Part shown: positions 16,573 through 45,712 of the stretch, one piece after another
Layout of the letters: each line of letters opens with the position of its first letter
Numbering within the stretch: the first letter of the stretch is position 1
DNA from: Halichondria panicea
Lineage: Eukaryota; Porifera; Demospongiae; Suberitida; Halichondriidae
Assembly (NCBI RefSeq): GCF_963675165.1
Contig: NC_087377.1
Span: forward strand, 5,208,042 to 5,272,041
DNA: 64,000 bases
Reading direction: 5' to 3'
Notes under the pieces: model-generated
Database searches by the model: none
Told to the model about the DNA's origin: nothing
What the model saw: only the letters and a program-made list of their open reading frames with translations
Program-made: the position numbers and the translations under genes

Positions 16573-16574
16573 AA

Positions 16575-16696
16575 GTTTTTTTCTCCATAACCAATCCTAG
16601 ATTACATCATCTGGGTGCTTCTTGGTTATACTATTACACTGTGTATTACATCATACTATTACACTGTGTATTACATCATAAGCTTGTATATACATT
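16575..16696 (+). repeat. Left terminal flank of the minisatellite block
   Basis: Contains TTTCTCCAT, AACCAATCCTAGATTACATC, ATCTGGGTGC and two copies of CATACTATTACACTGTGTAT. The same strings in the same order occur in reverse complement at 45593-45712, outside the second array. The unit therefore behaves as an outer terminal inverted repeat. It begins right after the CARD/CABIT stop codon. Confidence 0.85.
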
Positions 16697-19600
16697 ATGT
16701 AATGTAGATAAGGTAGGTAAGGCACTGGTAATGTAGGTAACACTGGTAATGTAGGTAACACTGGTAATGCAGGTAACACTGGTGATGTAGGTAACACTGG
16801 TAATGCAGTTAATGTAGGTAACACTGGTAATGTAGGTAACACTGGTAATGTAGGTAACACTGGTAATGTAGGTAACACAGGTAATGTAGGTAACACAGAT
16901 AATGTAGGTAATGCAAGTAGCACAGGTAATGTAGGTAATATGGGTAATGTAGGTAACACTGGTAATTAATGTAGGTAACACGGGTAATGTAGGTAATGTA
17001 GGTAACACGGGTAATGTAGGTAACATGGGTAATGTAGGTAATATGGGTAATGTAGGTAACACTGGTAATTAATGTAGGTAACACGGGTAATGTAGGTAAT
17101 GTAGGTAACACGGGTAATGTAGGTAACACGGGTAATGTAGGTAATATGGGTAATGTAGGTAACACTGGTAAGGTAGGTAATGTAGGTAACACGGGTAATG
17201 TAGGTAACACTGGTAATGTAGGTAGCACTGGTAATGTAGGTAACACGGGTAATGCAGGTAACACTGGTAATGTAGGTAACACAGGTAATGTAGGTAACAC
17301 GGGTAATGTAGGTAATGCAGGTAACACTGGTAATGTAGGTAACACTGGTAATGTAGGTAACACAGGTAATGTAGGTAACACGGGTAATGTAGGTAATGTA
17401 GGTAACACTGGTAATGTAGGTAACACAGGTAATGTAGGTAACACAGGTAATGTAGGTAATGCAGGTAACACAGGTAATGTAGGTAATGTAGGTAACACTG
17501 GTAATGTAGGTAATATGGTAACACGGGTAATGTAGGTAATGTAGGTAACACGGGTAATGTAGGTAACATGGGTAATGTAGGTAATGCAGGTAACACAGGT
17601 AATGTAGGTAACACGGGTAATGTAGGTAATATGGGTAATGTAGGTAACACTGGTAATGTAGGTAACACTGGTAAGGTAGGTAATGTAGGTAACACGGGTA
17701 ATGTAGGTAACACTGGTAATGTAGGTAACACTGGTAATGTAGGTAACACGGGTAATGCAGGTAACACGGGTAATGTAGGTAACGCAGGTAATGTAGGTAA
17801 TGCAGGTAATGTAGGTAATGTAGGTAACACGGGTAATGTAGGTAACACAGGTAATGTAGGTAACACGGGTAATGTAGGTAATGCAGGTAACACTGGTAAT
17901 GTAGGTAACACTGGTAATGTAGGTAACACTGGTAATGTTGGTAACACGGGTAATGTAGGTAACACAGGTAATGTAGGTAACACAGGTAATGTAGGTAACA
18001 CGGGTAATGTAGGTAATGTAGGTAACACTGGTAATGTAGGTAACACGGGTAATGTAGGTAACACTGGTAATGTAGGTAACACCGGTAATGTAGGTAACAC
18101 GGGTAATGTAGGTAATGTAGGTAACACGGGTAATGTAGGTAACACTGGTAATGTAAGTAACACAGGTAATGTAGGTAACACAGGTAATGTAGGTAATGTA
18201 GGTAACACGGGTAATGTAGGTAACACAGGTAATGTAGGTAATGTAGGTAATGTAGGTAACACTGGTAATGTAGGTAATGTAGGTAACACTGGTAATGTAG
18301 GTAACACGGGTAATGTAGGTAATGTAGGTAACACTGGTAATGTAGGTAACATGGGTAATGTAGGTAACACTGGTAATGCTGGTAACACGGGTAATGTAGG
18401 TAATACTGGTAACACTGATAATGTAGGTAATACTGGTAATGCAGGTATAACACTGGTAATGTAGGTAACACTGGTAATGCAGGTAATGTAGGTAATGCAG
18501 GTAACACGGGTAATGTAGGTAATGTAGGTAATGCAGGTAACACGGGTAATGTAGGTAATGCTGGTAACACTGGTAATGTAGGTAATACTGGTAATGCAGG
18601 TAACACGGGTAATGTAGGTACCGCAGGTAATGTAGGTAACACTGGTAAGGTAGGTAATTGTAGGTAACACTGGTAATGCAGGTAATGTAGGTAACACTGG
18701 TAATGCAGGTAATGTAGGTAATGCAGGTAACACGGGTAATGTAGGTAATACTGGTAATGCAGGTAACACGGGTAATGTAGGTAACGCAGGTAATGTAGGT
18801 AACACTGGTAAGGTAGGTAATGTAGGGTTAGGGGTAATGTAGGTAACACTGGTAATGTAGGTAACGCAGGTAATGTAGGTAACACGGGTAATGTAGGTAA
18901 CACTGGTAATGTAGGTAATGTAGGTAACACCGGTAATGTAGGTAACATGGGTAATGTAGGTAATGTAGGTAACACGGGTAATGTAGGTAATGTATGTAAC
19001 ACTGGTAATGTAGGTAATGTAGGTAACACTGGTAATGTAGATAACACCGGTAATGTAGGTAACATGGGTAATGTAGGTAATGCAGGTAACACAGGTAATG
19101 TAGGTAACACGGGTAATGTAGGTAATATGGGTAATGTAGGTAACACTGGTAAGGTAGGTAATGTAGGTAACACGGGTAATGTAGGTAACACTGGTAATGT
19201 AGGTAGCACTGGTAATGTAGGTAACACGGGTAATGCAGGTAACACTGGTAATGTAGGTAACACAGGTAATGTAGGTAACACGGGTAATGTAGGTAATGCA
19301 GGTAACACTGGTAATGTAGGTAACACTGGTAATGTAGGTAACACAGGTAATGTAGGTAACACGGGTAATGTAGGTAATGTAGGTAACACTGGTAATGTAG
19401 GTAACACAGGTAATGTAGGTAACACAGGTAATGTAGGTAATGCAGGTAACACAGGTAATGTAGGTAATGTAGGTAACACTGGTAATGTAGGTAATATGGT
19501 AACACGGGTAATGTAGGTAATGTAGGTAACACGGGTAATGTAGGTAACATGGGTAATGTAGGTAATGCAGGTAACACAGGTAATGTAGGTAACACGGGTA

Positions 19601-22600
19601 ATGTAGGTAATATGGGTAATGTAGGTAACACTGGTAATGTAGGTAACACTGGTAAGGTAGGTAATGTAGGTAACACGGGTAATGTAGGTAACACTGGTAA
19701 TGTAGGTAACACTGGTAATGTAGGTAACACGGGTAATGCAGGTAACACGGGTAATGTAGGTAACGCAGGTAATGTAGGTAATGCAGGTAATGTAGGTAAT
19801 GTAGGTAACACGGGTAATGTAGGTAACACAGGTAATGTAGGTAACACGGGTAATGTAGGTAATGCAGGTAACACTGGTAATGTAGGTAACACTGGTAATG
19901 TAGGTAACACTGGTAATGTTGGTAACACGGGTAATGTAGGTAACACAGGTAATGTAGGTAACACAGGTAATGTAGGTAACACGGGTAATGTAGGTAATGT
20001 AGGTAACACTGGTAATGTAGGTAACACGGGTAATGTAGGTAACACTGGTAATGTAGGTAACACCGGTAATGTAGGTAACACGGGTAATGTAGGTAATGTA
20101 GGTAACACGGGTAATGTAGGTAACACTGGTAATGTAAGTAACACAGGTAATGTAGGTAACACAGGTAATGTAGGTAATGTAGGTAACACGGGTAATGTAG
20201 GTAACACAGGTAATGTAGGTAATGTAGGTAATGTAGGTAACACTGGTAATGTAGGTAATGTAGGTAACACTGGTAATGTAGGTAACACGGGTAATGTAGG
20301 TAATGTAGGTAACACTGGTAATGTAGGTAACATGGGTAATGTAGGTAACACTGGTAATGCTGGTAACACGGGTAATGTAGGTAATACTGGTAACACTGAT
20401 AATGTAGGTAATACTGGTAATGCAGGTATAACACTGGTAATGTAGGTAACACTGGTAATGCAGGTAATGTAGGTAATGCAGGTAACACGGGTAATGTAGG
20501 TAATGTAGGTAATGCAGGTAACACGGGTAATGTAGGTAATGCTGGTAACACTGGTAATGTAGGTAATACTGGTAATGCAGGTAACACGGGTAATGTAGGT
20601 ACCGCAGGTAATGTAGGTAACACTGGTAAGGTAGGTAATTGTAGGTAACACTGGTAATGCAGGTAATGTAGGTAACACTGGTAATGCAGGTAATGTAGGT
20701 AATGCAGGTAACACGGGTAATGTAGGTAACACTGGTAATGCAGGTAACACGGATAATGTAGGTAATGCTGGTAACACGGGTAATGTAGGTAATACTGGTA
20801 ATGCAGGTAACACGGGTAATGTAGGTAACGCAGGTAATGTAGGTAACACTGGTAAGGTAGGTAATGTAGGGTTAGGGGTAATGTAGGTAACACTGGTAAT
20901 GTAGGTAACGCAGGTAATGTAGGTAACACGGGTAATGTAGGTAACACTGGTAATGTAGGTAATGTAGGTAACCGGTAATGTAGGTAACATGGGTAATGTA
21001 GGTAATGTAGGTAACACGGGTAATGTAGGTAATGTATGTAACACTGGTAATGTAGGTAATGTAGGTAACACTGGTAATGTAGATAACACCGGTAATGTAG
21101 GTAACATGGGTAATGTAGGTAATGTAGGTAACACGGGTAATGTAGGTAACACTGGTAATGTAAGTAACACAGGTAATGTAGGTAACACGGGTAAGGTAGG
21201 TAATGTAGGTAACACGGGTAATGTAGGTAACACTGGTAATGTAGGTAACACTGGTAATGTAGGTAACACGGGTAATGCAGGTAACACTGGTAATGTAGGT
21301 AACGCAGGTAATGTAGGTAATGCAGGTAATGTAGGTAATGTAGGTAACACGGGTAATGTAGGTAACACAGGTAATGTAGGTAGCACGGGTAATGTAGGTA
21401 ATGCAGGTAACACTGGTAATGTAGGTAACACTGGTAATGTAGGTAACACTGGTAATGTTGGTAACACGGGTAATGTAGGTAACACAGGTAATGTAGGTAA
21501 CACAGGTAATGTAGGTAACACGGGTAATGTAGGAAATGTAGGTAACACTGGTAATGTAGGTAACACGGGTAATGTAGGTAACACTGGTAATGTAGGTAAC
21601 ACCGGTAATGTAGGTAACACGGGTAATGTAGGTAATGTAGGTAACACGGGTAATGTAGGTAACACTGGTAATGTAAGTAACACAGGTAATGTAGGTAACA
21701 CAGGTAATGTAGGTAATGTAGGTAACACGGGTAATGTAGGTAACACAGGTAATGTAGGTAATGTAGGTAATGTAGGTAACACTGGTAATGTAGGTAATGT
21801 AGGTAACACTGGTAATGTAGGTAACACGGGTAATGTAGGTAATGTAGGTAACACTGGTAATGTAGGTAACATGGGTAATGTAGGTAACACTGGTAATGCT
21901 GGTAACACGGGTAATGTAGGTAATACTGGTAACACTGATAATGTAGGTAATACTGGTAATGCAGGTATAACACTGGTAATGTAGGTAACACTGGTAATGC
22001 AGGTAATGTAGGTAATGCAGGTAACACGGGTAATGTAGGTAATGTAGGTAATGCAGGTAACACGGGTAATGTAGGTAATGCTGGTAACACTGGTAATGTA
22101 GGTAATACTGGTAATGCAGGTAACACGGGTAATGTAGGTACCGCAGGTAATGTAGGTAACACTGGTAAGGTAGGTAATTGTAGGTAACACTGGTAATGCA
22201 GGTAATGTAGGTAACACTGGTAATGCAGGTAATGTAGGTAATGCAGGTAACACGGGTAATGTAGGTAACACTGGTAATGCAGGTAACACGGATAATGTAG
22301 GTAATGCTGGTAACACGGGTAATGTAGGTAATACTGGTAATGCAGGTAACACGGGTAATGTAGGTAACGCAGGTAATGTAGGTAACACTGGTAAGGTAGG
22401 TAATGTAGGGTTAGGGGTAATGTAGGTAACACTGGTAATGTAGGTAACGCAGGTAATGTAGGTAACACGGGTAATGTAGGTAACACTGGTAATGTAGGTA
22501 ATGTAGGTAACACCGGTAATGTAGGTAACACGGGTAATGTAGGTAATGTAGGTAACACGGGTAATGTAGGTAATGTAGGTAACACTGGTAATGTAGGTAA

Positions 22601-25600
22601 TGTAGGTAACACTGGTAATGTAGATAACACCGGTAATGTAGGTAACATGGGTAATGTAGGTAATGTAGGTAACACGGGTAATGTAGGTAACACTGGTAAT
22701 GTAAGTAACACAGGTAATGTAGGTAAGGTAACACAGGTAATGTAGGTAACACGGGTAATGTAGGTAATGTAGGTAACACTGGTAATGTAGGTAACACGGG
22801 TAATGTAGGTAACACTGGTAATGTAAGTAACACTGGTGATGTAGGTAAGGTAACACAGGTAATGTAGGTAACACGGGTAATGTAGGTAATGTAGGTAACA
22901 CTGGTAATGTAGGTAACACGGGTAATGTAGGTAACACTGGTAATGTAGGTAATGTAGGTAACACCGGTAATGTAGGTAACACGGGTAATGTAGGTAATGT
23001 AGGTAACACGGGTAATGTAGGTAACACTGGTAATGTAAGTAACACAGGTAATGTAGGTAATGTAGGTAACACAGGTAATGTAGGTAATGTAGGTAACACG
23101 GGTAATGTAGGTAACACAGGTAATGTAGGTAATGTAGGTAACACTGGTAATGTAGGTAACACGGGTAATGTAGGTAATGCTGGTAATGTAGGTAATGTAG
23201 GTAACACTGGTAATGTAGGTAACACGGGTAATGTAGGTAACACTGGTAATGCTGGTAACAGGGGTAATGTAGGTAATGCTGGTAACACTGGTAATGTAGG
23301 TAATACTGGTAATGCAGGTATAACACTGGTAATGTAGGTAACACTGGTAATGTTGGTAACACGGGTAATGTAGGTAACACAGGTAATGTAGGTAACACAG
23401 GTAATGTAGGTAACACTGGTAATGTAGGTAATGTAGGTAACACTGGTAATGTAGGTAACACGGGTAATGTAGGTAATGTAGGTAACACGGGTAATGTAGG
23501 TAACACAGGTAATGTAGGTAATGTAGGTAACACTGGTAATGTAGGTAACACGGGTAATGTAGGTAATGCTGGTAATGTAGGTAATGTAGGTAACACTGGT
23601 AATGTAGGTAACACGGGTAATGTAGGTAACACTGGTAATGCTGGTAACACGGGTAATGTAGGTAATGCTGGTAACACTGGTAATGTAGGTAATACTGGTA
23701 ATGCAGGTATAACACTGGTAATGTAGGTAACACTGGTAATGTTGGTAACACGGGTAATGTAGGTAACACAGGTAATGTAGGTAACACAGGTAATGTAGGT
23801 AACACGGGTAATGTAGGTAATGTAGGTAACACTGGTAATGTAGGTAACACGGGTAATGTAGGTAACACTGGTAATGTAGGTAACACCGGTAATGTAGGTA
23901 ACACGGGTAATGTAGGTAATGTAGGTAACACGGGTAATGTAGGTAACACTGGTAATGTAAGTAACACAGGTAATGTAGGTAACACAGGTAATGTAGGTAA
24001 TGTAGGTAACACGGGTAATGTAGGTAACACAGGTAATGTAGGTAATGTAGGTAATGTAGGTAACACTGGTAATGTAGGTAATGTAGGTAACACTGGTAAT
24101 GTAGGTAACACGGGTAATGTAGGTAATGTAGGTAACACTGGTAGTGTAGGTAACATGGGTAATGTAGGTAACACTGGTAATGCTGGTAACACGGGTAATG
24201 TAGGTAATACTGGTAACACTGGTAATGTAGGTAATACTGGTAATGCAGGTATAACACTGGTAATGTAGGTAACACTGGTAATGCAGGTAATGTAGGTAAT
24301 GCAGGTAACACGGGTAATGTAGGTAATGTAGGTAATGCAGGTAACACGGGTAATGTAGGTAATGCTGGTAACACTGGTAATGTAGGTAATACTGGTAATG
24401 CAGGTAACACGGGTAATGTAGGTACCGCAGGTAATGTAGGTAACACTGGTAAGGTAGGTAATTGTAGGTAACACTGGTAATGCAGGTAATGTAGGTAATG
24501 CAGGTAACACGGGTAATGTAGGTAACACTGGTAATGCAGGTAACACGGATAATGTAGGTAATGCTGGTAACACGGGTAATGTAGGTAATAATGGTAATGC
24601 AGGTAACACGGGTAATGTAGGTAACGCAGGTAATGTAGGTAACACTGGTAATGTAGGTAATGTAGGTAACACCGGTAATGTAGGTAACACGGGTAATGTA
24701 GGTAATGTAGGTAACACGGGTAATGTAGGTAATGTAGGTAACACTGGTAATGTAGGTAATGTAGGTAACACTTGTAATGTAGGTAACACCGGTAATGTAG
24801 GTAACATGGGTAATGTAGGTAATGTAGGTAACACGGGTAATGTAGGTAACACTGGTAATGTAAGTAACACAGGTAATGTAGGTAAGGTAACACAGGTAAT
24901 GTAGGTAACACGGGTAATGTAGGTAATGTAGGTAACACTGGTAATGTAGGTAACACGGGTAATGTAGGTAACACTGGTAATGTAGGTAATGTAGGTAACA
25001 CCGGTAATGTAGGTAACACGGGTAATGTAGGTAATGTAGGTAACACGGGTAATGTAGGTAACACTGGTAATGTAAGTAACACAGGTAATGTAGGTAATGT
25101 AGGTAACACAGGTAATGTAGGTAATGTAGGTAACACGGGTAATGTAGGTAACACAGGTAATGTAGGTAATGTAGGTAACACTGGTAATGTAGGTAACACG
25201 GGTAATGTAGGTAATACTGGTAATGTAGGTAATGTAGGTAACACTGGTAATGTAGGTAACACGGGTAATGTAGGTAACACTGGTAATGCTGGTAACACGG
25301 GTAATGTAGGTAATGCTGGTAACACTGGTAATGTAGGTAATACTGGTAATGCAGGTATAACACTGGTAATGTAGGTAACACTGGTAATGCAGGTAATGTA
25401 GGTAATGCAGGTAACGCGGGTAATGTAGGTAATGTAGGTAATGCAGGTAACACGGGTAATGTAGGTAATGCTGGTAACACTGGTAATGTAGGTAATACTG
25501 GTAATGCAGGTAACACGGGTAATGTAGGTACCGCAGGTAATGTAGGTAACACTGGTAAGGTAGGTAATTGTAGGTAACACTGGTAATGCAGGTAATGTAG

Positions 25601-27775
25601 GTAATGCAGGTAACACGGGTAATGCAGGTAACACGGATAATGTAGGTAATGCTGGTAACACGGGTAATGTAGGTAATACTGGTAATGCAAGTAACACGGG
25701 TAATGTAGGTAACGCAGGTAATGTAGGTAACACTGGTAAGGTAGGTAATGTAGGGTTAGGGGTAATGTAGGTAACACTGGTAATGTAGGTAACACTGGTA
25801 ATGTAGGTAATGTAGGTAACACGGGTAATGTAGGTAACACGGGTAAGGTAGGTAACACGGGTAATGTAGGTAATGTAGGTAACACTGGTAATGTAGGTAA
25901 CACGGGTAATGTAGGTAACACTGGTAATGTAAGTAACACAGGTAATGTAGGTAACACGGGTAATGTAGGTAATGTAGGTAACACTGGTAATGTAGGTAAC
26001 ACTGGTAATGTAGGTAACACGGGTAATGTAGGTAACACTGGTAATGTAGGTAATGTAGGTAACACCGGTAATGTAGGTAACACGGGTAATGTAGGTAATG
26101 TAGGTAACACGGGTAATGTAGGTAACACTGGTAATGTAAGTAACACAGGTAATGTAGGTAATGTAGGTAACACAGGTAATGTAGGTAATGTAGGTAACAC
26201 GGGTAATGTAGGTAACACAGGTAATGTAGGTATTGTAGGTAACACTGGTAATGTAGGTAACACGGGTAATGTAGGTAATGCTGGTAATGTAGGTAACACT
26301 GGTAATGTAGGTAACACGGGTAATATAGGTAACACTGGTAATGCTGGTAACACGGGTAATGTAGGTAATGCTGGTAACACTGGTAATGTAGGTAATACTG
26401 GTAATGCAGGTAACACGGGTAATGTAGGTACCGCAGGTAATGTAGGTAACACTGGTAAGGTAGGTAATTGTAGGTAACACTGGTAATGCAGGTAATGTAG
26501 GTAATGCAGGTAACACGGGTAATGCAGGTAACACGGATAATGTAGGTAATGCTGGTAACACGGGTAATGTAGGTAATACTGGTAATGCAGGTAACACGGG
26601 TAATGTAGGTAACGCAGGTAATGTAGGTAACACTGGTAAGGTAGGTAATGTAGGGTTAGGGGTAATGTAGGTAACACTGGTAATGTAGGTAACACTGGTA
26701 ATGTAGGTAATGTAGGTAACACGGGTAATGTAGGTAACACGGGTAAGGTAGGTAACACGGGTAATGTAGGTAATGTAGGTAACACTGGTAATGTAGGTAA
26801 CACGGGTAATGTAGGTAACACTGGTAATGTAAGTAACACAGGTAATGTAGGTAACACGGGTAATGTAGGTAATGTAGGTAACACTGGTAATGTAGGTAAC
26901 ACGGGTAATGTAGGTAACACTGGTAATGTAGGTAATGTAGGTAACACCGGTAATGTAGGTAACACGGGTAATGTAGGTAATGTAGGTAACACGGGTAATG
27001 TAGGTAACACTGGTAATGTAAGTAACACAGGTAATGTAGGTAATGTAGGTAACACAGGTAATGTAGGTAATGTAGGTAACACGGGTAATGTAGGTAACAC
27101 AGGTAATGTAGGTATTGTAGGTAACACTGGTAATGTAGGTAACACGGGTAATGTAGGTAATGCTGGTAATGTAGGTAACACTGGTAATGTAGGTAACACG
27201 GGTAATGTAGGTAACACTGGTAATGCTGGTAACACGGGTAATGTAGGTAATGCTGGTAACACTGGTAATGTAGGTAATACTGGTAATGCAGGTATAACAC
27301 TGGTAATGTAGGTAACACTGGTAATGCAGGTAACACGGGTAATGTAGGTAATGTAGGTAATGCAGGTAACACGGGTAATGTAGGTAATGCTGGTAACACT
27401 GGTAATGTAGGTAATACTGGTAATGCAGGTAACACGGGTAATGTAGGTACCGCAGGTAATGTAGGTAACACTGGTAAGGTAGGTAATTGTAGGTAACACT
27501 GGTAATGCAGGTAATGTAGGTAATGTAGGTAACACTGGTAATGTAGGTAACACGGATAATGTAGGTAATGCTGGTAACACGGGTAATGTAGGTAATACTG
27601 GTAATGCAGGTAACACGGGTAATGTAGGTAACACTGGTAATGTAGGTAACACTGGTAATGTAGGTAATGTAGGTAACACGGGTAATGTAGGTAACACGGG
27701 TAAGGTAGGTAACACGAGGCAATGCTGGTAATGTATATACGTAAGGTAACACGAGGTAATGTAGAGTAACATGGG
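16697..27775. repeat. About 11-kb minisatellite array, 9/18-bp unit with higher-order repeats
   Basis: Tandem GTAATGTAG and GTAACACNG 9-mers, usually alternating as GTAATGTAGGTAACACNG. Higher-order structure is clear: the stretch 17568-18464 recurs, as read, at 19549-20445 (offset 1981 bp). A marker GTAGGGTTAGGGG returns near 18824, 20869, 22405, 25752 and 26650. Very long frames (Gly-Asn-Val/Thr, or Leu-Pro-Thr on the minus strand) are open only because the unit is a multiple of three and lacks stops. I do not call them genes. Confidence 0.97.
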
Positions 27776-28028
27776 TATAGTTATAATAAGTAATGTATTA
27801 TGCAATTAATTAGATGCAGAAATGCATGACTGTATATAGCTACGCATTAAGTATAGGTATTTTGTAACGGTGGTAATAATTAGCGGTTGCAATATTAAAT
27901 GCAATAAGTATTGATGAACACAATTTGAAACGACACTCTCCTAATAGTGACAAAGAGCAATATACATAATCATAAACAGAAGTCAGGTGCATGTATATAG
28001 AGCATGCACAATTGTTGCTATATAGCAG
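27776..28028. other. Inner border of the left array, no gene seen
   Basis: A unique AT-rich stretch. The piece TATAGGTATTTTGTAACGGTG resembles, in inverted orientation, TATAGGTTGTAACGGTGTG next to the inner border of the right array (about 43712-43730). The inverted repeat may therefore extend inside the arrays. Confidence 0.4.
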
Positions 28029-31343: not shown

Positions 31344-31424
31344 AATAGTTTTAATTAATTTAATTTTTGTTTGGATAGCCTTTACAGTACTCAGTGTTGT
31401 GAGTGTGTACCACTCAGAATTAAC

Positions 31425-34500: not shown

Positions 34501-35242
34501 TGTGAAAAAGAGCAATGTTCATAACAAGTGGTGGCTATCAATCCCTCAAAACCATAGCCACAACCCACTATTCAGCTCTTTACCACAAACACTTTAAGTG
34601 TCACAGTGGTTCCTTGCAATGCAACAGGTATAGCTTGCCCAATTATGCTCACAATTTTAGTCCAGTCTCCAAGTCCTACCCAGGTGTACGTCTTTAATTA
34701 TTACTCATTAGTCTCAATAAAAATCTTCAACCAGAATTATATACTGCAACATCACAGCCCTTCTACATAATCTTCTAAGGAACTATATTGGTGAAAGAAA
34801 TCTTAGAAAAGAGTTAACTGAGGTACTACTAGCACCTTCCTTCCATACGTATAATTATACACAGTATTAGCATATACTCATGCTATTGAGGCTATGGCAT
34901 GCTTCTTAAAATTATACTTTCTACCAAAATACAGTGATGGAGGCCCAGGGTGGGGCTCACATGAACAAAGAGAGGTCAATAGTGAGGCTAAATGCTAGAG
35001 TTCAAAAGTACAACTTGACAGCAGAAAAGTATGGTTTAAACTGTAGTAAATATTACATAATAAGGTTTAATTAACATGCACCAACAAGCATAATTAGCCT
35101 TAGATCTACCATATAGCAACAAAGAAGATGTGACAATTTTTGTCATAGGCCACAGAATGAGGAGATCGAGGCAGAGGGTACTATATGATTACATAGATCC
35201 TACTTCGCCCGTTTAATTAACATTGAAATCTATAATGCAGTT

Positions 35243-35250
35243 GTACCCAC
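35243..35250. repeat. P-element target site duplication, left
   Basis: GTACCCAC immediately precedes the left inverted repeat. The same 8 bp follow the right repeat at 39893-39900. Eight-base duplications are the hallmark of P-superfamily elements. Confidence 0.9.
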
Positions 35251-35397
35251 CATAGATTAAAGGAAGGAGAGGGATAGGAAACGTAGGAATCTTCGAAAAA
35301 CATCCGCGTTTCGCCTACGTCATGTTTTTGTCCCCGCCGCCCACAGACTTCTTTTCATTTTTTCATCCTCCAAGAACCAAAATGCTCACAAGAAACC

Positions 35398-36441
35398 ATG
35401 GCAAGTACAAGTATATCTACTAGTGCCTCCTGTGAAGTCATTCGAGGAGCTATAACATCCTTCATAGAGGATGTAAATCTGATTCCTTCTGATATTAACA
35501 CTAGGGCCAAAGAATTTGCAGCACACTTTCTTACTAAAGAAATGGAAACTGCAGACATGTTCGATCAGTTTTGTTTTTTATTAGAAAATGAGATTGAAAG
35601 TATATTCCTGAGTGTATCAAAGAGAATTCTTTCTCACACTGTCAAGAGAACTCAACTGTGGTCTGCCTTTCATGTGAAAAGAGAAGAAATGAGCAAACTG
35701 TGGATTAATAAATTGAAGTTGGAGGAGAGTTCGAGAGAAGGTCCACATGTGAACTTCTTTATTCAATCTATAAATCAATCATTGTTTGGAGAAAAGCTTA
35801 AACGTTTCATGGCACAAGAATGCCCACTGCCAGTTAATGGTGAGCCAAATGACCAGCTACCTAAATTAACAAAGGATGAATTGAATGCAATGCAGTATGT
35901 TGGTGGCTATGTACCCCACAAGCTACTAAAAAAATATGAAAAAAGGAGTGGAACTAAGTACTCGCAGTTTATTGAATGCTTAGGAAATATGGCTGTCGTA
36001 AATGAGGAGAGCTCACAAGATTTACTCTCGTACACTAAATGTTGGATGGAGAAAGTAAATCGAGGTGCGTTATTTCCATTGAACGATCGATCGTTCTGTC
36101 TGTTTGTAGAAATGGAGAAGACAACCAAGAGTGTATTACCTACGTATGTAATTGGAAAAGGTACCAGTACCGGTATGCAAACGCTGGACGATTTAGTAAA
36201 GAAAGTAACTTGCGACGAAGAGGTACAGTTTTTGTGGACACTTCTGTCTCAAGATGTGGAGTGTGAAGAAGATTCACAGCAACTTTTAAATGATATTGTA
36301 CACCTTTGGATTACTATAAGGGGATTTTCAATCGCATCTTTATGGATGGAGACATACAAAATAGCACACAAAGAGATTGAGAAAGTATTTGTCGTAATTA
36401 ATGTATTATTATGCTCATGCATGTATTGTATACTTTTTTGA
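35398..36441 (+). CDS. Accessory ORF of the P-like transposon, unknown function
   Basis: A 347-codon open frame starts 147 bp inside the left end of the element. It has no frameshift, unlike the transposase it faces. The middle carries ELNAMQYVGGYVPHKLLKKY, reminiscent of the Y.GGYV..KL segment of P/THAP9-type proteins. The rest is helical, with Cys and Trp scattered, and no catalytic triad could be recognised. The last codons (after EIEK, near 36393) run into a plausible donor, so the true C-terminus may come from a short downstream exon. It could be a second transposition protein or a captured regulator; neither is shown by the sequence. Confidence 0.7.
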   Translation: MASTSISTSASCEVIRGAITSFIEDVNLIPSDINTRAKEFAAHFLTKEMETADMFDQFCFLLENEIESIFLSVSKRILSHTVKRTQLWSAFHVKREEMSKLWINKLKLEESSREGPHVNFFIQSINQSLFGEKLKRFMAQECPLPVNGEPNDQLPKLTKDELNAMQYVGGYVPHKLLKKYEKRSGTKYSQFIECLGNMAVVNEESSQDLLSYTKCWMEKVNRGALFPLNDRSFCLFVEMEKTTKSVLPTYVIGKGTSTGMQTLDDLVKKVTCDEEVQFLWTLLSQDVECEEDSQQLLNDIVHLWITIRGFSIASLWMETYKIAHKEIEKVFVVINVLLCSCMYCILF

Positions 36442-36507
36442 ATTCTCGTGGTTGCTCAAATTTTAATATAAAATTATACAGTCATAATTATAGGAACATA
36501 AATTAAA

Positions 36508-39345
36508 CTACGAACGTTTCCTCTTGGGTAGTGGGGTATCATCGATTGTGTTCAATTCGAGCTGTCGCTTCCTGCGACAGTTCCTCTGACAGGATCTAGC
36601 ATTGCAGACTTCTGCATCCGGAGTGCAGAGGCATTAACGAGAGATTGAATTAGGTTTGGATTCTCATTGCGACCTCCTCTGGCCCTTTGTTTACCGAAGT
36701 AATTTTCAAGTGGGTCCTGGGAGAATCTCTCACTCAACAAAAAGAGACCATCTTCTTTGTTGGACAGAAGGAGCCTAGCCATTTCCACAAACGAGCACAC
36801 TATACATGTAAAAATATTGTATAGAGATGTAAAAGTTATTAATTAATTTACCTGTTATTTCTAAACCTTCCATAGTCTCAGCACTTAGCAATGCCTTCTG
36901 CTTGCTGTTGTCAGGGATTCCTTTGTCAGTATTTACTGAAGCTTTCCATTCTTTCAGATAGAGCAAGAAAGAATCTTCCAACCACTAAAATAAAATATTT
37001 AGCTTAAATATTACAATTTAAAACTCTTACCTTAAGCCGAGAGTCATCTGGACTTGTGTAGGGTTGAAGGTCAGGCTTCAATTTGGATTTCCACTCAGAA
37101 AGACTACGAACATTTAAGCAATCAAAAAAACGATCGAACATCCTAATAAAATTTTCGGTTTCCGTAGTGCTTTCATCACTGAAATAGGCCAGAGCATCTG
37201 CCACACTTTTACTCAATACCTGAATGAATGGTATATATAACTATCAGTTACGTAAGTAAAACTCGAACATACCTGGGCGGCGAGATCTACACGCATCCTA
37301 GAAAACCCAGTCAGCTCAACATGATCCACTTTGAGCTTTGGAACTAGTGTGAGCCCCTTAGATCCAACAGACATCAAATGGAGTTTACGGTGAAGTTCTT
37401 TGACATGGGCCCACTCAATGTACTTTCCATTGATCTGTGAAAGAGGGAAACAGACAATTTTAGCCAGCCATGCAATTTTGCAATAACTACCTGTACATTA
37501 TTGCCTGTTCACAAATTTAATGAAAAGCTTCTCAAAATGTCACTAACCTTCATTAATCTAGTACCGCTGAATCCTGAATGGGACCAACAATTTCGTGTGG
37601 TCTTTATCAAGTGAGGTGGATCACAGATGAAGAACACAGGCCTGCCTTCTCTAGGGTCTGCGTAGGGATTAAATGCCTTGTACACAAAGCCTTTGCCATG
37701 CATACGAAAGAATTTACGATTGGGACTCGCCCCATCTGCCGTAATACTAATCACTTTCCCTCCAATGCCTTCAATCATACGAATAGCTTCCCACACAATA
37801 GGAAATAAAAAATCTGCAGTTACTCCACGGGTTCCAAAATGAGCATAAGGAAAATCCAGCTTAAAGAAGATCCCTCTGACCATTATTACTAGGATGTATT
37901 GTGCCACAGGTGGGGTAGCACTTCTATCCTTTTTGCACTTCTGCTCCAATTCTGAAAGTATGTCACCAATATCACCTAAAGAAGTGAACCCAACGATATG
38001 ACCAGATTTCTTGTCATATACCAAATCTTCTTTAATCTTCATTTCATCAATAACTAATGCAACGTAACGTTTTGATTCAGGAAGCAATTGTATGTTCATT
38101 TCCTTTTGCAGATAGAGATTTACATCTGGATGAAAACCAGGTTGTTTATTGAAGTAATGAGTGTAGTCCCTTAGGGTACGTTCAGAAGGGAGCGTCAAGA
38201 AACCGGAAGATCTTATGCAATGAAATGCTGCACTTGAAATTAACTGCAAATTGATGCACCACTTTATTATTGCAGGGTGCCATCGAACTTGTCGAGGGTC
38301 CTTAACTGAAGCTGCCTTTAATTGCTCTTTCCAGAACAAATTAGGAAAACTCCCTTCTGGGTAAGCTCTATTTATTTGCTCGGTGTTGGTATTTAGGATG
38401 CTTAACAAATCGGAACTGAGACTCTTTTCAACTGTATCTCCTTCAGCTTCAATTGCTTCCTTGATTTTCTCCTTGAAGATTTTAACTTGCTTCTCAGCTG
38501 CACGTGATCGGTCCTTCAGGTTTTGCATTTTAGCTTTTTTTCAGGCGTATTTAGATAGCGCTCATTGGAATGCCCACTTGCGTCACTCATCTCTTCGACT
38601 GAACGTCTCTTACACCAAGCACTATACATAGCCCTTAAATTGGCACGATATGACTTACATGATGAACATTTCACAGAAGTAGACAATAGTTCACATTTTT
38701 CAGTCCGCACTGTTTCCGGATAGGATACACCGTTGAGGCATACACTGGCATGGCTGTCAATTTTAGCAGACACTTTCCATTTGCTACGATTTCACCTTTC
38801 TTGGCATTGACCATTGCTATAAATTGTGCATCGGGATGACCACAGCAAACACGTAAACGGTCGATCTCAAGGAGAAGATTTTCCAGTGTAACGATATCCA
38901 ATGTAACAGGAAACTGTTTCAATGACTGGCATGTTTCGGGGGTTAACTTATTGTTATGGACATACAATAGCCACTTCAAATCACTTTTTACCGTTAAGCA
39001 ATGGGTAATCACTACTGGTTGACGGCTGGTGGTAGCAGTGGAGCTAATTCTACACAACTTCATACAAACAGAGTCCTCAGTCGCATTGGACCATCCCTGG
39101 GGCAATTTCAGGGTTTGATGCAACTGGGGATTTCGTAGGAGATCACTCAGATGTACATTTGGTTCAATTTGGGGTGTGCTTGAAGTAGTTTCAGAGTCTA
39201 GGCTTGTGTCAATATGAGGTGTGCTTGACTCGGAGTCTAGGCTTGTGTCGGTATTCTCGTGTGAGTCATTTAAAATAGTCGCATTTTTTGAGGTTCTTTC
39301 CAGTCTCTTCTTGTGGGCCCGGTCCTTTCGACGAGTCAGAGGCAT
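36508..39345 (-). pseudogene. P-element/THAP9-type transposase, frameshifted
   Basis: Exons on the minus strand: 39345 to 37548, 37434-37273, 37219-37031, 36984-36852 and 36799-36508. P-type landmarks include ALVIDEMKIKEDLVYD, ISITADGASPNRKFF, FFICDPPHLIKTTRNCW and the terminal SQDPLENYFGKQRARGG. No THAP zinc finger (C2CH) is seen at the N-terminus; there is a basic start (MPLTRRKDRAHKKR) and a basic end PLPKRKRS. Three single-base shifts are needed: near 38776 (after VANGK), at an A7 run near 38535, and near 36590 (after DPVRG). All other joins keep phase. It is either dead or an error-prone stretch of assembly. Transposition by DDE-type cut-and-paste is the family role. Confidence 0.82.
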
Positions 39346-39892
39346 TTTCAAGCCTATATATACAAAGAATTTAGGTATGTCAGTATTTCTCTAAAAACTT
39401 TACTGGCAAAGTTGAGACCAGCTAATAAAACATTGAAGTATAGCATTTATTTACTTTACATTAAGTGGCATGTTTCTGCCAGCCAATCGAACTAATCCCA
39501 AAAGTAAATATCACCAGTCCATGTCTTATGAGCATCAGAAGATATTCAATGCTAATAAAAACTTTTGCATGCATTTACTCGAACATGGCTGTTAAAAGGG
39601 TCAAATTACATGAAATCAAGACAAAAACAGCTATAAAAAGTGCCTTACCTTGAAATTTTCTCCAAAAAATGCACGAGGCACTGGCAAAGGCAGCATATGA
39701 ACAAAACCTCCCTGAATGGTCGTCTCTTCTAGCAGAGTTTTTCGTGCAGCTGAGTTAAACGATTTTTCTCTAACTAATTAAAAAGCGAAACACGGATTGA
39801 GATCAAAGGACTTCTAACCACAAGCATCAAGTCTATGTACGTTTGGCACGTGATCAGCTGCCGTTTCCTATCCCTCTCCTTCCTTAATCTAT

Positions 39893-39900
39893 GTACCCAC
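39893..39900. repeat. P-element target site duplication, right
   Basis: GTACCCAC directly follows the right inverted repeat and is identical to 35243-35250. Confidence 0.9.
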
Positions 39901-40313: not shown

Positions 40314-40632
40314 GCCTAGAGCTAGCTATAAAGCTGAGACTTGCTGCATGAAGATGAGCAGAGTGTGGTTAATCTAGTCCCACCACAGAACAACCCCCTG
40401 CATGGTACAATAAAATCACTATCTAGTTGACCTCTGCATGCCACCATGATGCAGTCCAGCAAGATGCAGTCCAGCAAGATGAAAATTCTTTCTTTCTACA
40501 TACTGCTAACAGTAACACTCACAACACCCAACTCCTGTCACTCAATTAGTATCCCTCAGCAATGGACAATTATTCTCAAGGAATTGCTAACACAGTGAGT
40601 ATCTTATGTAAATTATTAGGTGCATTCAATGC
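40314..40632. promoter_or_regulatory. Divergent spacer between the leftward ATPase gene and the rightward transposase
   Basis: About 320 bp separate the ATG of the minus-strand gene (40313) from the plus-strand transposase frame (40633). A possible short plus-strand leader exon (MDNYSQGIANT, 40563-40595) ends at gtgagt and could be spliced to cag at about 40677. Contains CAGTCCAGCAAGATG in tandem (near 40453-40482). A shared bidirectional promoter is likely from geometry only. Confidence 0.35.
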
Positions 40633-43586
40633 ATGTGCACAATGGGGAATTTACATCTTTTATATACCGCTTTCAGGGTGCAACACAACTCGCAATCACC
40701 AATGGTGATGATACTGCAACCGAACAATTTTCAATATCTCCTTTCACAAAATGTCCCTTCTGACCTCTCGACATTGATTATGCCCACTGTGTTTGTATGG
40801 AACCCTCTAGCACAATTTCCATTATTAAGATCGTCCATTGAACGATGCCCTCGAGATAGTTGTAACGGTCTTATTGACTTTCATCTGTGGACTGATGGAG
40901 AGAGACAAGGCATGCTACCCCGGTCAATTCACGACACACATGAAATGATTCTGTTAATTGCAGCAGTCTATAAATGCAACTGTGATCACATAGTATATTC
41001 AACTGACCCCATACTTATGCAAACAATTAGCAGAGATGAAATTCCTTTTGTTCTGCTTCATCGTACCGGATTCACGAAACGTTTTGTACAAAATGTAGTT
41101 GGTCTTGCTCAGGAAGGTTTGTCAATGGAATCCATAGCAAGACAAATTGAGAACGTAAGACACCATCATGTTTCGGATGTTATCCAACAACTGCTAACTG
41201 CTTACAACACTGTCAATAAGGAACACCAAGCAGATTCAGATTTTGTAGAGACTATTGTGACATCAAAATCTGTTCAGCTTATTTGTCACCCAATCCCAAG
41301 CAATGACATTATTACCAAATGCTTCTTGATTACATTTGAAGAGAATGAATCATTTTATAATTCAGAAATGTCAAAACTGTCCATAAACAAGTGTTTGCGG
41401 ATGGATCACACATTCAAGGTTGCTTCAAACATAGGCTATCTACGTCATGATGGGAAATGGATAACACAATACTCCAGCCTTTTCATTGCCTTAAATGAAA
41501 ATGGAGAGGTAGTGAGTTGGCAACTCACTAAATCTACATCCATTGACGAGGTTGAATCAATACTATCTGATTTAAGCAAAAAAATTGACACCACCAAAGA
41601 GGAACTAACTATTTTTGTTGACAATTGTTGCCAAGTGAGAAATAAATTAGTATCTGTGTTTGGCAGTGGAGTGAAGGTTAAGCTTGACGTATTCCATGCT
41701 GTACAAAGAATAACTCGTGCTATTTCAAAGAAACACACGTTCTTTCATGCTTGTATTAAGGATTTGAGGATGGTTTTTAGATATCCTGTGGATATTGGGT
41801 ACAAAAGAACATTAAATACCCCACAATCACAACATTTAATGGCAAACATGGAAAGCTTCGTGGCTAAGTGGAAGGATGCTGAAAGTAATGGTAACAAAAT
41901 ATTGACAGAAAAAGTTATTGATAAAATTCAAAACCTTAAGGTACACATTGAACACGGTTGTCTATCAGATATCGAACCATCAGGTGGAACGAGTCACAAC
42001 GAAGCACTGCACCGACATATAAACCCACATTTTGGTCATGCGGGGAGAATGGGAATTCCACTGGCATACGCGCTACTAACTATCCTTTTGTACACACACA
42101 ATGCCAAAAAGGTAAACCCAAAGTATAATTCCATATCTCAGTTACTTGCAATGAAATCCACTCGACATACACGTTCTACCGGCTCCACAACATCTTTTGG
42201 AATAACTGAAAAGATTATAACTGGCACTAACATGACAGACAACACATATGAAATTAGTGATGAAGACAGGGATAAAGCTATAAGGAAAGCACTGTCACTA
42301 CAACAATTAGTTGATCAGACTACGAAACTTGTTGGACAATCCCCACTGTTTTCCTATCAAATGATTCCATTCATGACGTATGTACCCAGTCTTTATATGG
42401 CATTGCTCAAGATCATCCTCGACAAGTGAAGCACGAGAACATCATGAGCGTCTCACAAACATACTGACTGCATGTAATATGCAGAGGCATTTGATTCCTG
42501 GAGATGGTAATTGCTGCTTTACTACTGTTGCTTTCAGCCTGTCCTACAACTTTGCAAATGAATGATGAACATAAGCAATATCTTATACAGAAAGGTTTGA
42601 ACCCTAACATGGGTATTGAGGCAATGGCATTGATGTTGAGGCAACTTGCCGTGAAGGAATGGTTGGATAAGCCCCATAGATATGAACCTTTTTTGTGTGA
42701 AGGCACTGACCTTAAAAAAGTAGCAAAACTCTTCTTAAACCCCTCCACTTTTCAAGGCCAATTGGGAGATACGATGCTAACATGTCTATCCAACGTATTA
42801 GGAATACCAATTATTGTATTCTCCTCCATGGCATATCACACACTCTTCTGTGTCACCCCTGAGGTGCAACTTGTATCAATCCCATTAATGGTTGCATTTA
42901 ATCAGTACGGTCAAGGCCATTTTGATGGTGTCATTCCACTGCCACTACAACTAGTAAGTAATGCCGAGAATATGATTTCCTGTACTTGTGGTAAGAATGA
43001 CAAATCTGGAGGATCTCATTGCAGTGAAATCAAGTACAAATACACAACCAAAATATCATGCCCATGCTTAAAAGCAGGCGAGGGATGCCATGCAAAATGT
43101 GTTTGCAAAAGTTGTAGCAACAGTATTGCTAAGAGACCCCCAAAAACAATAGTAAAACGCAACAGGCACAAGCACCAGTGGCAGAAACATGAAATCACCA
43201 AAAGTATTGGTTTTGCTGAAAAGAAGCAAGAAATAGTTATGACTGGACCCCCTACAAAGCTGGAGTACTTCCTTTTAGAAGCAATCTTATCTTACTGCTC
43301 TGAAAATGAACTAGAATCTAGTAGTGACATTATATCATCCATCTATAATACCCACTTTTTGACTGCATCTGATCAAGGCCTGAAACTTAGCCCAAAATCA
43401 TCAAGTGATATTGCAAAGTACCTGTTGCACCGACGCAAATCACTAGCTACTTTCGCACAACTGTGTACAATGCAATTGAAATGCACACTGCAAGAGGCAC
43501 ATCATGACGACATCAGTACAGACAGTGGAGATGATACAGATGATGATGATGATGAACCGCATAAGAAAACGCCAAGGCGACAGTAG
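40633..43586 (+). pseudogene. DDE-like transposase with OTU peptidase and CXC-type cysteine cluster
   Basis: The first frame (to 42429) carries a transposase-like core: LRMDHTFKVAS, then IFVDNCCQVRNKLVSVFG, KLDVFHAVQRITRAI and SGGTSHNEALHRHINPHFGH, giving plausible D, D and E/H catalytic positions. After a frame change near 42400 comes an OTU cysteine-protease start, HLIPGDGNCCFTTVAFSL (DGNC, catalytic Asp and Cys). After another shift near 42560 come its distal part and catalytic-His segment GQGHFDGVIP. Then follows a cysteine cluster (ISCTCGKN, SCPCLKAGEGCHAKCVCKSC), like tesmin/MSL2 CXC domains, and an Asp-rich tail ending KKTPRRQ. Transposases with OTU and CxC modules are known in the KDZ/Zisupton group; I cannot fix the superfamily. 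Single-base shifts suggest decay. It is the candidate mobilising enzyme of the surrounding block. Confidence 0.6.
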
Positions 43587-43744
43587 AAAACACTTACAGC
43601 TACCCATATACTATTTAATCACTATTCTTCATTGTTATTTGTGTCGTTTCAAGGTTGTGTTCATCAATATTCACTGCATGCATATTTCAACTTTACCGTA
43701 CCATAATATGCACACCGTTACAACCTATATCCTATCAGTATTAC

Positions 43745-45592
43745 ATCTATATACCTATACATTACCTGCATTACCTGTATTACCTGTATTACCAACATTA
43801 CCCGTGTTACCTACATTACCTACATTACCAGTGTTACCTACATTACCCGTGTTACCAGTGTTACCTACATTACCCGTGTTACCTACATTACCTGTGTTAC
43901 CTGTATTACCAACATTACCCGTGTTACCTACATTACCCGTGTTACTTACATTACCTACATTACCTACATTACCAGTGTTACCTGCATTACCTGTGTTACC
44001 TACATTACCTGTGTTACCTGTATTACCTACATTACCTACATTACCTACATTACCTACATTACCTGCATTACCAGTGTTACCTACATTACCTGCATTACCT
44101 GCATTACCTGTATTACCTACATTACCTGTGCTACCTACATTACCCGGGTTACCTACATTACCCGTGTTACCTACATTACCTACATTACCTGTATTACCTG
44201 TATTACCTGTATTACCTGTATTACCAACATTACCTGTGCTACCTACATTACCCGGGTTACCTACATTACCTACATTACCTGTATTACCTACATTACCTGT
44301 ATTACCTGTATTACCTGTATTACCTGTATTACCTACATTACCAGTGTTACCTACATTACCTACATTACCAGTGTTACCTACATTACCCGTGTTACCTACA
44401 TTACCAGTGTTACCTACATTACCTACATTACCTGTATTACCTACATTACCAGTGTTACCTACATTACCTACATTACCAGTGTTACCTACATTACCTACAT
44501 TACCAGTGTTACCTACATTACCCATGTTACCTACATTACCAGTGTTACCTACATTACCTACATTACCTGTATTACCTACATTACCCGTGTTACCTACATT
44601 ACCAGTGTTACCTACATTACCTACATTACCTGTATTACCTACATTACCAGTGTTACCTACATTACCCGTGTTACCTACATTACCAGTGTTACCTACATTA
44701 CCCGTGTTACCTACATTACCCGTGTTACCTACATTACCAGTGTTACCTACATTACCGGTGTTACCTACATTACCTACATTACCCGTGTTACCTACATTAC
44801 CAGCATTACCTACATTACCTACATTACTAGTATTACCTACATTACCCGTGTTACCTACATTACCAGCATTACCTACATTACCTACATTACCCGTGTTACC
44901 TACATTACCTACATTACCAGTGTTACCTACATTACTAGTGTTACCTACATTACCAGCATTACCTACATTACCTACATTACCAGTGTTACCTACATTACCA
45001 GCATTACCTACATTACCGGTGTTACCCGTGTTACCTACATTACCCGTGTTACCTACATTACCTACATTACCCGTGTTACCTACATTACCAGTGTTACCTA
45101 CATTACCTACATTACCCGTGTTACCTACATTACCAGTGTTACCTACATTACCAGTGTTACCTACATTACCTACATTACCAGTGTTACCTACATTACCAGT
45201 GTTACCTACATTACCAGTGTTACCTACATTACCAGTGTTACCTACATTACCTACATTACCAGTGTTACCTACATTACCAGTGTTACCTACATTACCAGTG
45301 TTACCTACATTACCAGTGTTACCTACATTACCAGTGTTACCTACATTACCAGTGTTACCTACATTACCCGTGTTACCTACATTACCTACATTACCAGTGT
45401 TACCTACATTACCTACATTACCAGTGTTACCTACATTACCAGTGTTACCTACATTACCAGTGTTACCTACATTACCCGTGTTACCTACATTACCAGTGTT
45501 ACCTACATTACCCGTGTTACCTACATTACCTACATTACCTGCATTACCTACACTACCAGTGTTACCTACATTACTAGTGTTACCTACATAAT
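43745..45592. repeat. About 1.85-kb minisatellite array, inverted relative to the 11-kb array
   Basis: CTACATTAC and CAGTGTTAC/CCGTGTTAC 9-mers, the reverse complement of the 16.7-27.8 kb unit. The inner end is rich in CTGTATTAC variants; the outer half is the most regular. Leu-Pro-Thr and Gly-Asn-Val frames are repeat artefacts. Confidence 0.97.
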
Positions 45593-45712
45593 TATAGTGC
45601 ATTACTATGATTATGATGTAATACACAGTGTAATAGTATGATGTAATGCAAGAAATAGTTGCACCCAGATGATGTAATCTAGGATTGGTTACATGGAGAA
45701 ACAACCAACCTA
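45593..45712 (-). repeat. Right terminal flank of the minisatellite block
   Basis: Reverse-complement counterpart of 16575-16696: ATGATGTAATACACAGTGTA, GCACCCAGAT, GATGTAATCTAGGATTGGTT and ATGGAGAAA. No perfect target duplication could be found outside the two flanks (CTAAAAG on the left, CCTAAAG on the right is only suggestive). Confidence 0.85.

What the first reader, a model, noticed from the sequence alone, without database searches (positions are those of the whole stretch)
16575..45712. Candidate giant (about 29 kb) mobile element with minisatellite inverted ends
The two 9-bp-unit arrays lie in opposite orientations. Beyond each, the same unique flank of about 120 bp appears, also inverted (AACCAATCCTAGATTACATC is at both outer edges). 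The segment just inside each array also shares TTGTAACGGTG in inverted orientation. The enclosed genes are mobile-element-like and arranged divergently: transposase with OTU and CXC modules rightward; DUF927-like ATPase, Crinkler/RHS NTPase and a tandem-repeat protein leftward. The left edge starts directly after a host stop codon. I know of no described animal element with kilobase minisatellite arrays as its inverted ends and this gene set.
Basis: partly seen in the sequence, partly recalled or inferred. Interest (0 to 1): 0.92.

Follow-up and report, generated by a model that had tools for sequence, protein, structure and literature searches.

The report
Foldback jumping gene with ATPase partner
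A 29-kb stretch of an animal chromosome is a large jumping gene whose two ends are long tandem-repeat arrays in mirror image; the same genome holds related elements with unrelated arrays but the same kind of companion ATPase gene, so this is a variant of a known class rather than an oddity of one locus.

Summary
Two 9-bp-unit arrays (11.1 and 1.8 kb) lie inverted between matching outer (81%) and inner (72%) flanks. The element spans about 16575-45706, with a degenerate target duplication (7 of 9). Its ends, arrays and inner junctions recur elsewhere in the same 131-Mb genome, so it is a transposon family, not an assembly artefact. The layout is that of foldback transposons, already described in animals. 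The transposase is Mutator/IS256-like (weak profile hits) with an otubain-like part.

Two claimed cargo genes are secondary: a P-like element is nested at 35251-39893 (a C8 relative keeps the empty site), and the 'Crinkler/RHS' NTPase is a 98.96% copy of a C12 exon.

The new part is a DUF927-like (primase/helicase-like) ATPase. Its relatives lie within 10 kb of a Mutator-type transposase in 14 of 26 clusters (0.2 expected; copies not independent), across several lineages, mostly divergent. Two further lineages (one 14.0-kb locus; one family of seven nearly identical copies) have the same architecture with different arrays and perfect 8- and 9-bp target duplications. Conclusion: a new variant of foldback Mutator-type elements with a recurrent ATPase partner, whose function is inferred.

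The parts
16566..16574 (.). left copy of the degenerate target-site duplication (AAACTAAAA), overlapping the host stop codon at 16570-16572
   Evidence: 7 of 9 match to 45707-45715; positions
16575..16708 (+). left outer terminal repeat (foldback flanking domain); outermost bases degenerate, so the exact first base is uncertain
   Evidence: 81% to the right end over 107 columns; homologous ends elsewhere
16709..27771 (+). left minisatellite array, 9-bp unit (GGTAATGTA, GGTAACACT and variants), 11.1 kb
   Evidence: TRF; strand-specific unit counts
27832..27936 (+). left inner repeat domain
   Evidence: 72% to 43641-43754 inverted, E 1e-11; array/inner junction seen again at C3:3785685
28240..29135 (-). 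acidic tandem-repeat coding region; possibly the C-terminal end of the ATPase gene (inferred from similar-looking tails downstream of the ATPase in two other elements)
   Evidence: ORFs; comparable tails; no direct homology shown
30021..31354 (-). captured exon of a P-loop NTPase gene, 98.96% identical to C12:2595796-2597138
33422..35143 (-). DUF927-like / primase-helicase-like ATPase gene (main ORF 33708-34571)
   Evidence: Pfam DUF927 E 2e-4, below cut-off; homologues beside Mutator-type transposases
35251..39893 (.). nested P-like element (33-bp terminal repeats, transposase pieces 37509-38540 and 38671-39390 on -, another ORF 35287-36441 on +); not part of the original element
   Evidence: PF21787 E 3e-24, Tnp_P_element E 0.012 below cut-off; terminal repeats, GTACCCAC duplication and empty site in C8
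40612..42429 (+). Mutator/IS256-like transposase; candidate DDE residues D265, D337, E464 of the ORF (assignment by motif, recalled)
   Evidence: IS256 profile E 0.007, below cut-off; homologue with 903-aa open frame; spacing
42430..43586 (+). otubain-like (OTU) and cysteine-rich CXC-like part of the same protein; frame interrupted 42429-42555 in this copy
   Evidence: otubain E 0.002, below cut-off, in the homologue; CXC label recalled, no profile hit
43641..43754 (-). right inner repeat domain
   Evidence: the same inner sequence up to the array at C8, C15 and C3
43758..45589 (-). right minisatellite array, same 9-bp unit inverted, 1.8 kb
45590..45706 (-). right outer terminal repeat ending ...TGGAGAAACAACC
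45707..45715 (.). right copy of the degenerate target-site duplication (AACCTAAAG)

Best explanation
This is an old, now probably inactive copy of a foldback transposon of the Mutator/IS256 group. Its long inverted ends consist of an outer terminal domain, a 9-bp minisatellite array and an inner domain. The original middle held two genes: a transposase with a C-terminal otubain-like and cysteine-rich region, and on the other strand a DUF927-like, primase/helicase-like ATPase. Shown: structure, inverted paired relatives, target duplications of 8-9 bp in some copies, recurrent ATPase-transposase linkage, a nested P-like element with its empty site, and a captured NTPase exon. Inferred: the transposase pairs the two ends; the arrays offer repeated binding sites or simply grow by slippage and unequal exchange; the ATPase is a transposition accessory (remodelling the end complex, choosing the target, or helping replication or repair at the cut), as accessory ATPases are in some bacterial transposons (recalled analogy); derivatives that lack the genes are mobilised in trans.
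For: Inverted flank/array/inner repeat. 25 exact 20-mer places in the genome, 0 for the reversed control; of 16 examined, 14 carry the terminal sequence. Relatives that share ends and arrays but keep only pieces of the window's interior: C15 and two on C3; relatives of which only the end sequence matched the window: C4, C5, C6, C1:5.09 Mb, the last with a short transposase remnant. Target duplications: at least 7 of 8 or 7 of 9 in 7 of 9 element pairs, perfect in 3, versus 1 of 72 (k=9) and 0 of 72 (k=8) mismatched flank pairs. Second lineage at C1:4676580-4690570: 37% identical transposase, 8-bp-unit inverted arrays, ATPase-like gene, perfect 8-bp duplication. Third lineage, seven nearly identical copies: 65 of 65 array-pattern matches fall in these seven places, minus-strand array left and plus-strand right, with ATPase and PF10551 MULE between; perfect 9-bp duplication at C9, the one copy tested. 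ATPase clusters with a transposase within 10 kb: 14 of 26, 0.195 expected; a further pair at C15.
Against: The window transposase and its 903-aa relative give no Pfam MULE (PF10551) hit; the IS256 hits are far below the curated cut-off. OTU domains also occur in Ginger1 transposases and Helitrons, so that part is not diagnostic (PMC2836005, passages). The target duplication of the window copy is imperfect, and two of nine pairs (C1:5.09 Mb, C15) show none. DUF927 similarity is mainly the nucleotide-binding loop (36 residues). 12 of 26 ATPase clusters had no transposase within 10 kb, and 35 of 48 transposase clusters had no ATPase. Seven of the 14 linked clusters are copies of one family. AlphaFold models were unusable (mean pLDDT 34 and 35).
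Confidence: 0.85

Rival explanations
1. The ATPase is not a transposition partner but a passenger, a helicase-like gene that Mutator-type elements of this genome captured early and carried along.
For: 12 of 26 ATPase clusters lie away from any detected transposase and 35 of 48 transposase clusters lack the ATPase; these elements do capture gene pieces, as the C12 exon shows.
Against: It is linked to several transposase lineages, 37% identical or recognised by different profiles, is divergent in 9 of 9 PF10551-linked cases, and keeps a 285-aa open frame without a stop in five of the seven copies of the third lineage.
Confidence: 0.3
2. The arrays are ordinary satellite DNA that expanded independently, and the inverted pairing around the genes is coincidental or an assembly effect.
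For: Long tandem arrays are hard to assemble (general knowledge).
Against: The outer flank, inner flank and array junctions recur at other loci. In the window-type pattern search 93 of 94 matches lie in loci with this family's ends, the other place was not examined; in the seven-copy family 65 of 65 lie in the inverted order.
Confidence: 0.04
3. The whole 29 kb is a giant composite element (Polinton- or Starship-like) in which all enclosed genes, including the NTPase and the P-like transposase, are functional cargo.
For: Size and gene number; a genuine pair of ends encloses all of them.
Against: The P-like element has its own terminal repeats, a target duplication and an empty site in C8; the NTPase piece lacks the upstream part of its C12 relative; none of the ten ORFs scanned, nine of them in the element, hit a capsid, DNA polymerase, tyrosine recombinase or packaging ATPase (most gave no hit at all).
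Confidence: 0.05

Closest known systems
Foldback (FB-like) transposons: Tetris, Galileo, Tm1, sea urchin and Drosophila FB elements
   Same: Long inverted ends of outer, tandem-repeat and (Tetris) inner domains; 8-10 bp duplications for Tetris and 9 bp for Tm1; non-autonomous derivatives (PMC4079207 and PMC3169594, passages)
   Different: Here the arrays reach 11 kb with 8-9 bp units, and relatives of an ATPase gene recur in several lineages; no such partner is mentioned in the passages read
Rehavkus and Phantom Mutator elements with a minisatellite
   Same: A minisatellite near an end, 8-10 bp duplications, Mutator-type transposase (PMC6446971, passages; section 6 with Table 1)
   Different: There the minisatellite is described before the 3' end (Rehavkus) or after the transposase ORF (aphid Phantom), not as inverted arrays at both ends; Rehavkus has a PHD finger, not seen here
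MuDR-6_HM of Hydra
   Same: Table lists an ovarian-tumour (OTU) gene with a Mutator element (PMC6446971 Table 1)
   Different: One ORF listed, no arrays and no ATPase mentioned there
Pack-TIR / Pack-MULE gene capture
   Same: A host gene fragment between transposon ends; proposed gap-filling origin (PMC8277862, abstract and outline)
   Different: Here the captured exon sits inside an element that also carries transposase and ATPase genes
Bacterial transposons with an accessory ATPase (Mu MuB, Tn7 TnsC, IS21 IstB; recalled)
   Same: Transposase plus separate P-loop ATPase
   Different: The ATPase here resembles primase/helicase proteins; homology to MuB, TnsC or IstB was not tested or shown

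Membership tests
Foldback transposon (structural class) | Inverted ends with outer domain, tandem-repeat domain and inner domain | tested here: met
Foldback transposon (structural class) | Dispersed copies with variable array lengths, some lacking the genes | tested here: met
Mutator (MULE) superfamily | 8-11 bp target-site duplication | tested here: inconclusive
   Window copy 7 of 9; perfect 8 bp at C4 and C1:4.68 Mb, perfect 9 bp at C9; none in 2 of 9 pairs
Mutator (MULE) superfamily | MULE/IS256-type DDE transposase | tested here: inconclusive
   Window and 903-aa relative: no PF10551 hit, IS256 E 0.007 and 0.01 below cut-off; the seven-copy and C12 lineages are over the PF10551 cut-off
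Rehavkus | PHD finger in the transposase and minisatellite before the 3' end | tested here: not met
   No PHD hit; arrays at both ends
DUF927 (PF06048) | Score above the gathering cut-off over the domain | tested here: not met
   21.3 bits against 22.6, mainly residues 182-217
Crinkler/RHS NTPase | Profile match to a Crinkler or RHS family | tested here: not met
   No Pfam match up to E 10 for the window protein; paralogue weakly DAP3 / nSTAND3
P element (nested) | P-type transposase above cut-off | tested here: inconclusive
   PF21787 (TNP-like RNase H) E 3e-24, over cut-off; Tnp_P_element E 0.012, below cut-off
P element (nested) | Inverted ends and about 8-bp duplication | tested here: met
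   33-bp ends at 97%, GTACCCAC (7-8 bp, last base ambiguous), empty site in C8
Pack-TIR capture | Copy of a host gene fragment between the ends with a source elsewhere in the genome | tested here: met
   98.96% over 1343 columns to C12; direction of copying inferred

The most novel reading that the evidence does not exclude
A two-component group of animal transposons in which a Mutator-type transposase works with its own primase/helicase-like ATPase, and in which minisatellite arrays of unrelated sequence but similar 8-9 bp period have become the working ends in several lineages independently, suggesting that the machinery itself generates or needs such arrays.
Probability: 0.3. Interest if true: 0.82.

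Novelty: new variant of a known kind. Interest (0 to 1): 0.6.

Why it matters
Eukaryotic cut-and-paste transposons are usually thought to need little beyond their transposase (general knowledge). A recurrent, mostly divergent ATPase partner in several Mutator-type lineages of one genome would give a eukaryotic counterpart to the ATPase-assisted transposons of bacteria. The seven nearly identical copies suggest recent movement, so the idea can be tested. The elements also show long minisatellites spreading as parts of transposons.

Tried and rejected
Crinkler/RHS identity for the NTPase: no Pfam, NCBIfam or useful PHROG match. Viral relatives: scans of viral contigs with the transposase and ATPase, single queries that reach close relatives only, found none. 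Solved structures: the three-sequence ATPase profile matched 0 chains up to E 10. AlphaFold on the window transposase and ATPase alone: mean pLDDT 34 and 35, not used further. Idea that the array period equals the target-duplication length: 8/8 at C1:4.68 Mb and 9/9 at C9, but the best duplication at C4 (9-bp unit) is 8 bp with ambiguous ends, so it is not claimed. Homology of the exon after the ATPase across elements: alignments too weak to claim. Relatedness of the array units: 14 of 15 unit pairs match at 4-6 positions, which random 9-mers often reach; the exception, GGTAACACT and GTAGCACTG (two branches of the window's family), matches at 8, reached by 5 of 2000 random pairs. Organism: not identified; animal status is inferred only from a weak, below-cut-off CABIT match of the neighbouring gene, recalled as animal-specific. 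Papers: looked for such an ATPase partner or such ends; I saw their listings, and passages or sections of seven papers (PMC6446971, PMC6431247, PMC4079207, PMC13359780, PMC2836005, PMC3169594; of PMC8277862 only abstract and outline). They cover only the held open-licence library, and Repbase could not be consulted.
Full report
WHAT IS THERE. The window is C1:5208042-5272041 of an unnamed 131-Mb genome in 39 contigs. TRF finds two long arrays, 16709-27771 and 43758-45589. They share a 9-bp unit in opposite orientation: GGTAA 1162 against TTACC 0 in the left array, 0 against 196 in the right, 44 and 43 in 51,040 other bases. Outside the arrays the two ends match in inverted orientation (81% over 107 columns, E 3e-25; best other place in the masked window E 0.88). 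Inside them an inner domain matches too (27832-27936 with 43641-43754, 72% over 118 columns, E 1e-11). The element runs from about 16575 to 45706. The host stop codon at 16570-16572 is inside the presumed target duplication, which matches at 7 of 9.

IS IT A FAMILY. The 20-mer AACCAATCCTAGATTACATC occurs 25 times exactly and its reversed control 0 times. I examined 16 of the 25 places; 14 carry the terminal sequence (the window's left one in mutated form), 2 (C6:4627238, C6:4638466) do not. Five pairs face each other: C1:5.09 Mb, C4, C5, C6 (second end found only with mismatches allowed) and the window; TRF on the C1, C5 and C6 copies shows inverted arrays of a related 9-bp unit inside. A second set of ends, starting about 41 bp further in, bounds copies on C15 and C3 that keep only pieces of the window's interior (97.2% over 1094 columns at C15; 97.6% over 453 at C3:1.13 Mb; 79% over 184 at C3:3.79 Mb). 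C8 carries a rearranged relative: one end with array and 42598-43760, and about 18 kb away pieces of the transposase and ATPase region at 88-96%, with one 35-base piece identical. In a search with 47 bases of the array, 93 of 94 matches lie in loci with these ends; the other (C2:2484361) was not examined. The array/flank and array/inner junctions of both sides therefore recur elsewhere, which argues against an assembly artefact.

TARGET DUPLICATIONS. In nine element pairs, the flanks next to the ends match at 7 or more of 8 or 9 in seven, perfectly in three (C4 8/8, C1:4.68 Mb 8/8, C9 9/9). C5 needs an offset of three to four bases, so it is weak. C1:5.09 Mb and C15 show none. Mismatched flanks reach 7 of 9 in 1 of 72 and 7 of 8 in 0 of 72 combinations. 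C3:1.13 Mb was left out because its left end is truncated, and only one of the seven third-lineage copies was tested.

TWO OTHER LINEAGES. (a) C1:4676580-4690570, 14.0 kb: a 903-aa open frame that joins the counterparts of both window ORFs (37% and 30% identical), an ATPase-like gene (26-32% in three pieces), inverted arrays of an unrelated 8-bp unit, inverted ends and a perfect 8-bp duplication. Among the places listed for this array pattern are three further pairs in the same plus-left, minus-right order (C1:7.64, C1:12.10, C4:4.15 Mb), and also places seen in one orientation only; the list was cut short of the 334 matches. (b) A family with seven copies about 98-99.9% alike over the stretches compared. 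All 65 matches of its array pattern lie in these seven places, always minus on the left and plus on the right. Each has a PF10551 MULE hit and an ATPase 2.0-6.7 kb apart, transcribed away from each other. The outermost array matches lie at least 7.1 kb apart; the C9 copy, the longest, is about 13.7 kb. At C9 both ends and a perfect 9-bp duplication were read. The C9 left, C7 left and C10 right ends agree at 97-99%; the C9 right end agrees with them at only 85-86%.

THE ATPASE PARTNER. The window ORF 33708-34571 scores 21.3 bits for DUF927 (cut-off 22.6), mainly at the nucleotide-binding loop. Its C9 relative matches a phage primase/helicase family at E 2e-4. The hits fall in 26 clusters; 14 have a transposase of the window type or a PF10551 hit within 10 kb, against 0.195 expected (binomial 1.6e-23). 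This P value overstates independence because seven are copies of one family; by lineage the links are the window type (with C8), the C1:4.68 Mb type (with C17), the seven-copy family, C12, C10:4.08 Mb, and C15:2.53 Mb (the last). Gene directions are divergent in the window and in 9 of 9 PF10551 cases, convergent at C1:4.68 Mb and C17:4.10 Mb, the same strand at C10:4.08 Mb. 12 of 26 ATPase clusters and 35 of 48 transposase clusters have no partner within 10 kb. These counts are lower bounds by the tool's own statement.

WHAT IS NOT ORIGINAL CARGO. 35251-39893 is a P-like element: a TNP-like RNase H domain at E 3e-24 with a below-cut-off P-element HTH match, 33-bp terminal repeats at 97%, repeated GTACCCAC, and an uninterrupted site in C8. 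30021-31354 is 98.96% identical over 1343 columns to C12:2595796-2597138, begins just before a splice-acceptor-like CTACCACAG, lacks the coding part found upstream on C12, and is flanked by the direct repeat TTAATTAAAAC (the exon reading is mine). A paralogue at 44-45% lies near the C12 gene, so C12 is the likelier source. Gap filling, the route proposed for single-copy animal Pack-TIRs (PMC8277862, abstract), would fit. The Crinkler/RHS label has no support from any search here.

TRANSPOSASE. Window and C1:4.68 Mb proteins share DHTFK, D[ND]CC and NE motifs with spacings 72/127 and 69/128. Their best NCBIfam match is IS256, recalled as the bacterial relative of Mutator, at E 0.007 and 0.01, far under its cut-off; neither hits PF10551. 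The C-terminal part of the relative has an otubain match at E 0.002, also below cut-off; the cysteine-rich CXC name is recalled. In the window copy the reading frame is interrupted between 42429 and 42555, so this copy is probably inactive.

MECHANISM. Shown: ends, arrays, copies, duplications, linkage. Inferred: cut-and-paste by the transposase bound to the terminal domains; movement of derivatives in trans; arrays as repeated binding sites, as discussed for Galileo and Tetris (PMC4079207, passages), or as by-products of slippage; the ATPase as accessory factor. The accessory role is my preferred reading at about 0.5; that the gene is a long-carried passenger is the main rival at about 0.3.

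KNOWN OR NEW. Foldback architecture, Mutator affinity, minisatellites in Rehavkus and Phantom, and an OTU gene with a Hydra Mutator element are in print (passages and sections read). I found no description of an ATPase partner in the listings of searches of the open-licence library or in the parts read. One group of that paper's table (MULE-Co, Filozoa) has an unknown second ORF, which could be a similar case. I therefore rate it a new variant of a known kind.

Noticed in passing
C9:2864400-2865333 (L066): A different array (unit GTTGCATCT) lies between the MULE hit and an upstream ORF of the C9 copy; that copy's gene pair is 6.7 kb apart instead of about 2 kb, so the array may have come with an insertion.
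   Followed up: partly
C9:2874221-2874853 (L067:1489-2121): An integrase-core ORF (PF24764, E 4e-76) lies just outside the right end of the C9 element.
   Followed up: no
window 34634-34908; C6:4638152-4638439; C1:4679936-4680058: A stretch beside the ATPase main ORF matches DNA at C6 (80%, right beside an isolated copy of the 20-mer that lacks the terminus) and upstream of the ATPase of the C1:4.68 Mb element (87% over 125 columns), far closer than the proteins are; unexplained.
   Followed up: no
window 54761-54844; L041 1202-1572; L039 4648-4922: A very similar 43-bp tandem repeat (ATGCAGTGATCATGTCTGCAC...) occurs in the window outside the element and beside or inside the C3 and C15 copies, perhaps another repeat-bearing transposon.
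   Followed up: no
C12:2589000-2604999 (L061, L062): The likely source region of the captured NTPase exon holds two NTPase genes among inverted repeats and 82-bp tandem arrays (up to 98% between arms), possibly a further foldback-like element.
   Followed up: partly
window 9375-9574 and 46943-47142: Two 200-base runs of N, the second about 1.2 kb beyond the right end of the element (assembly gaps or withheld stretches).
   Followed up: no
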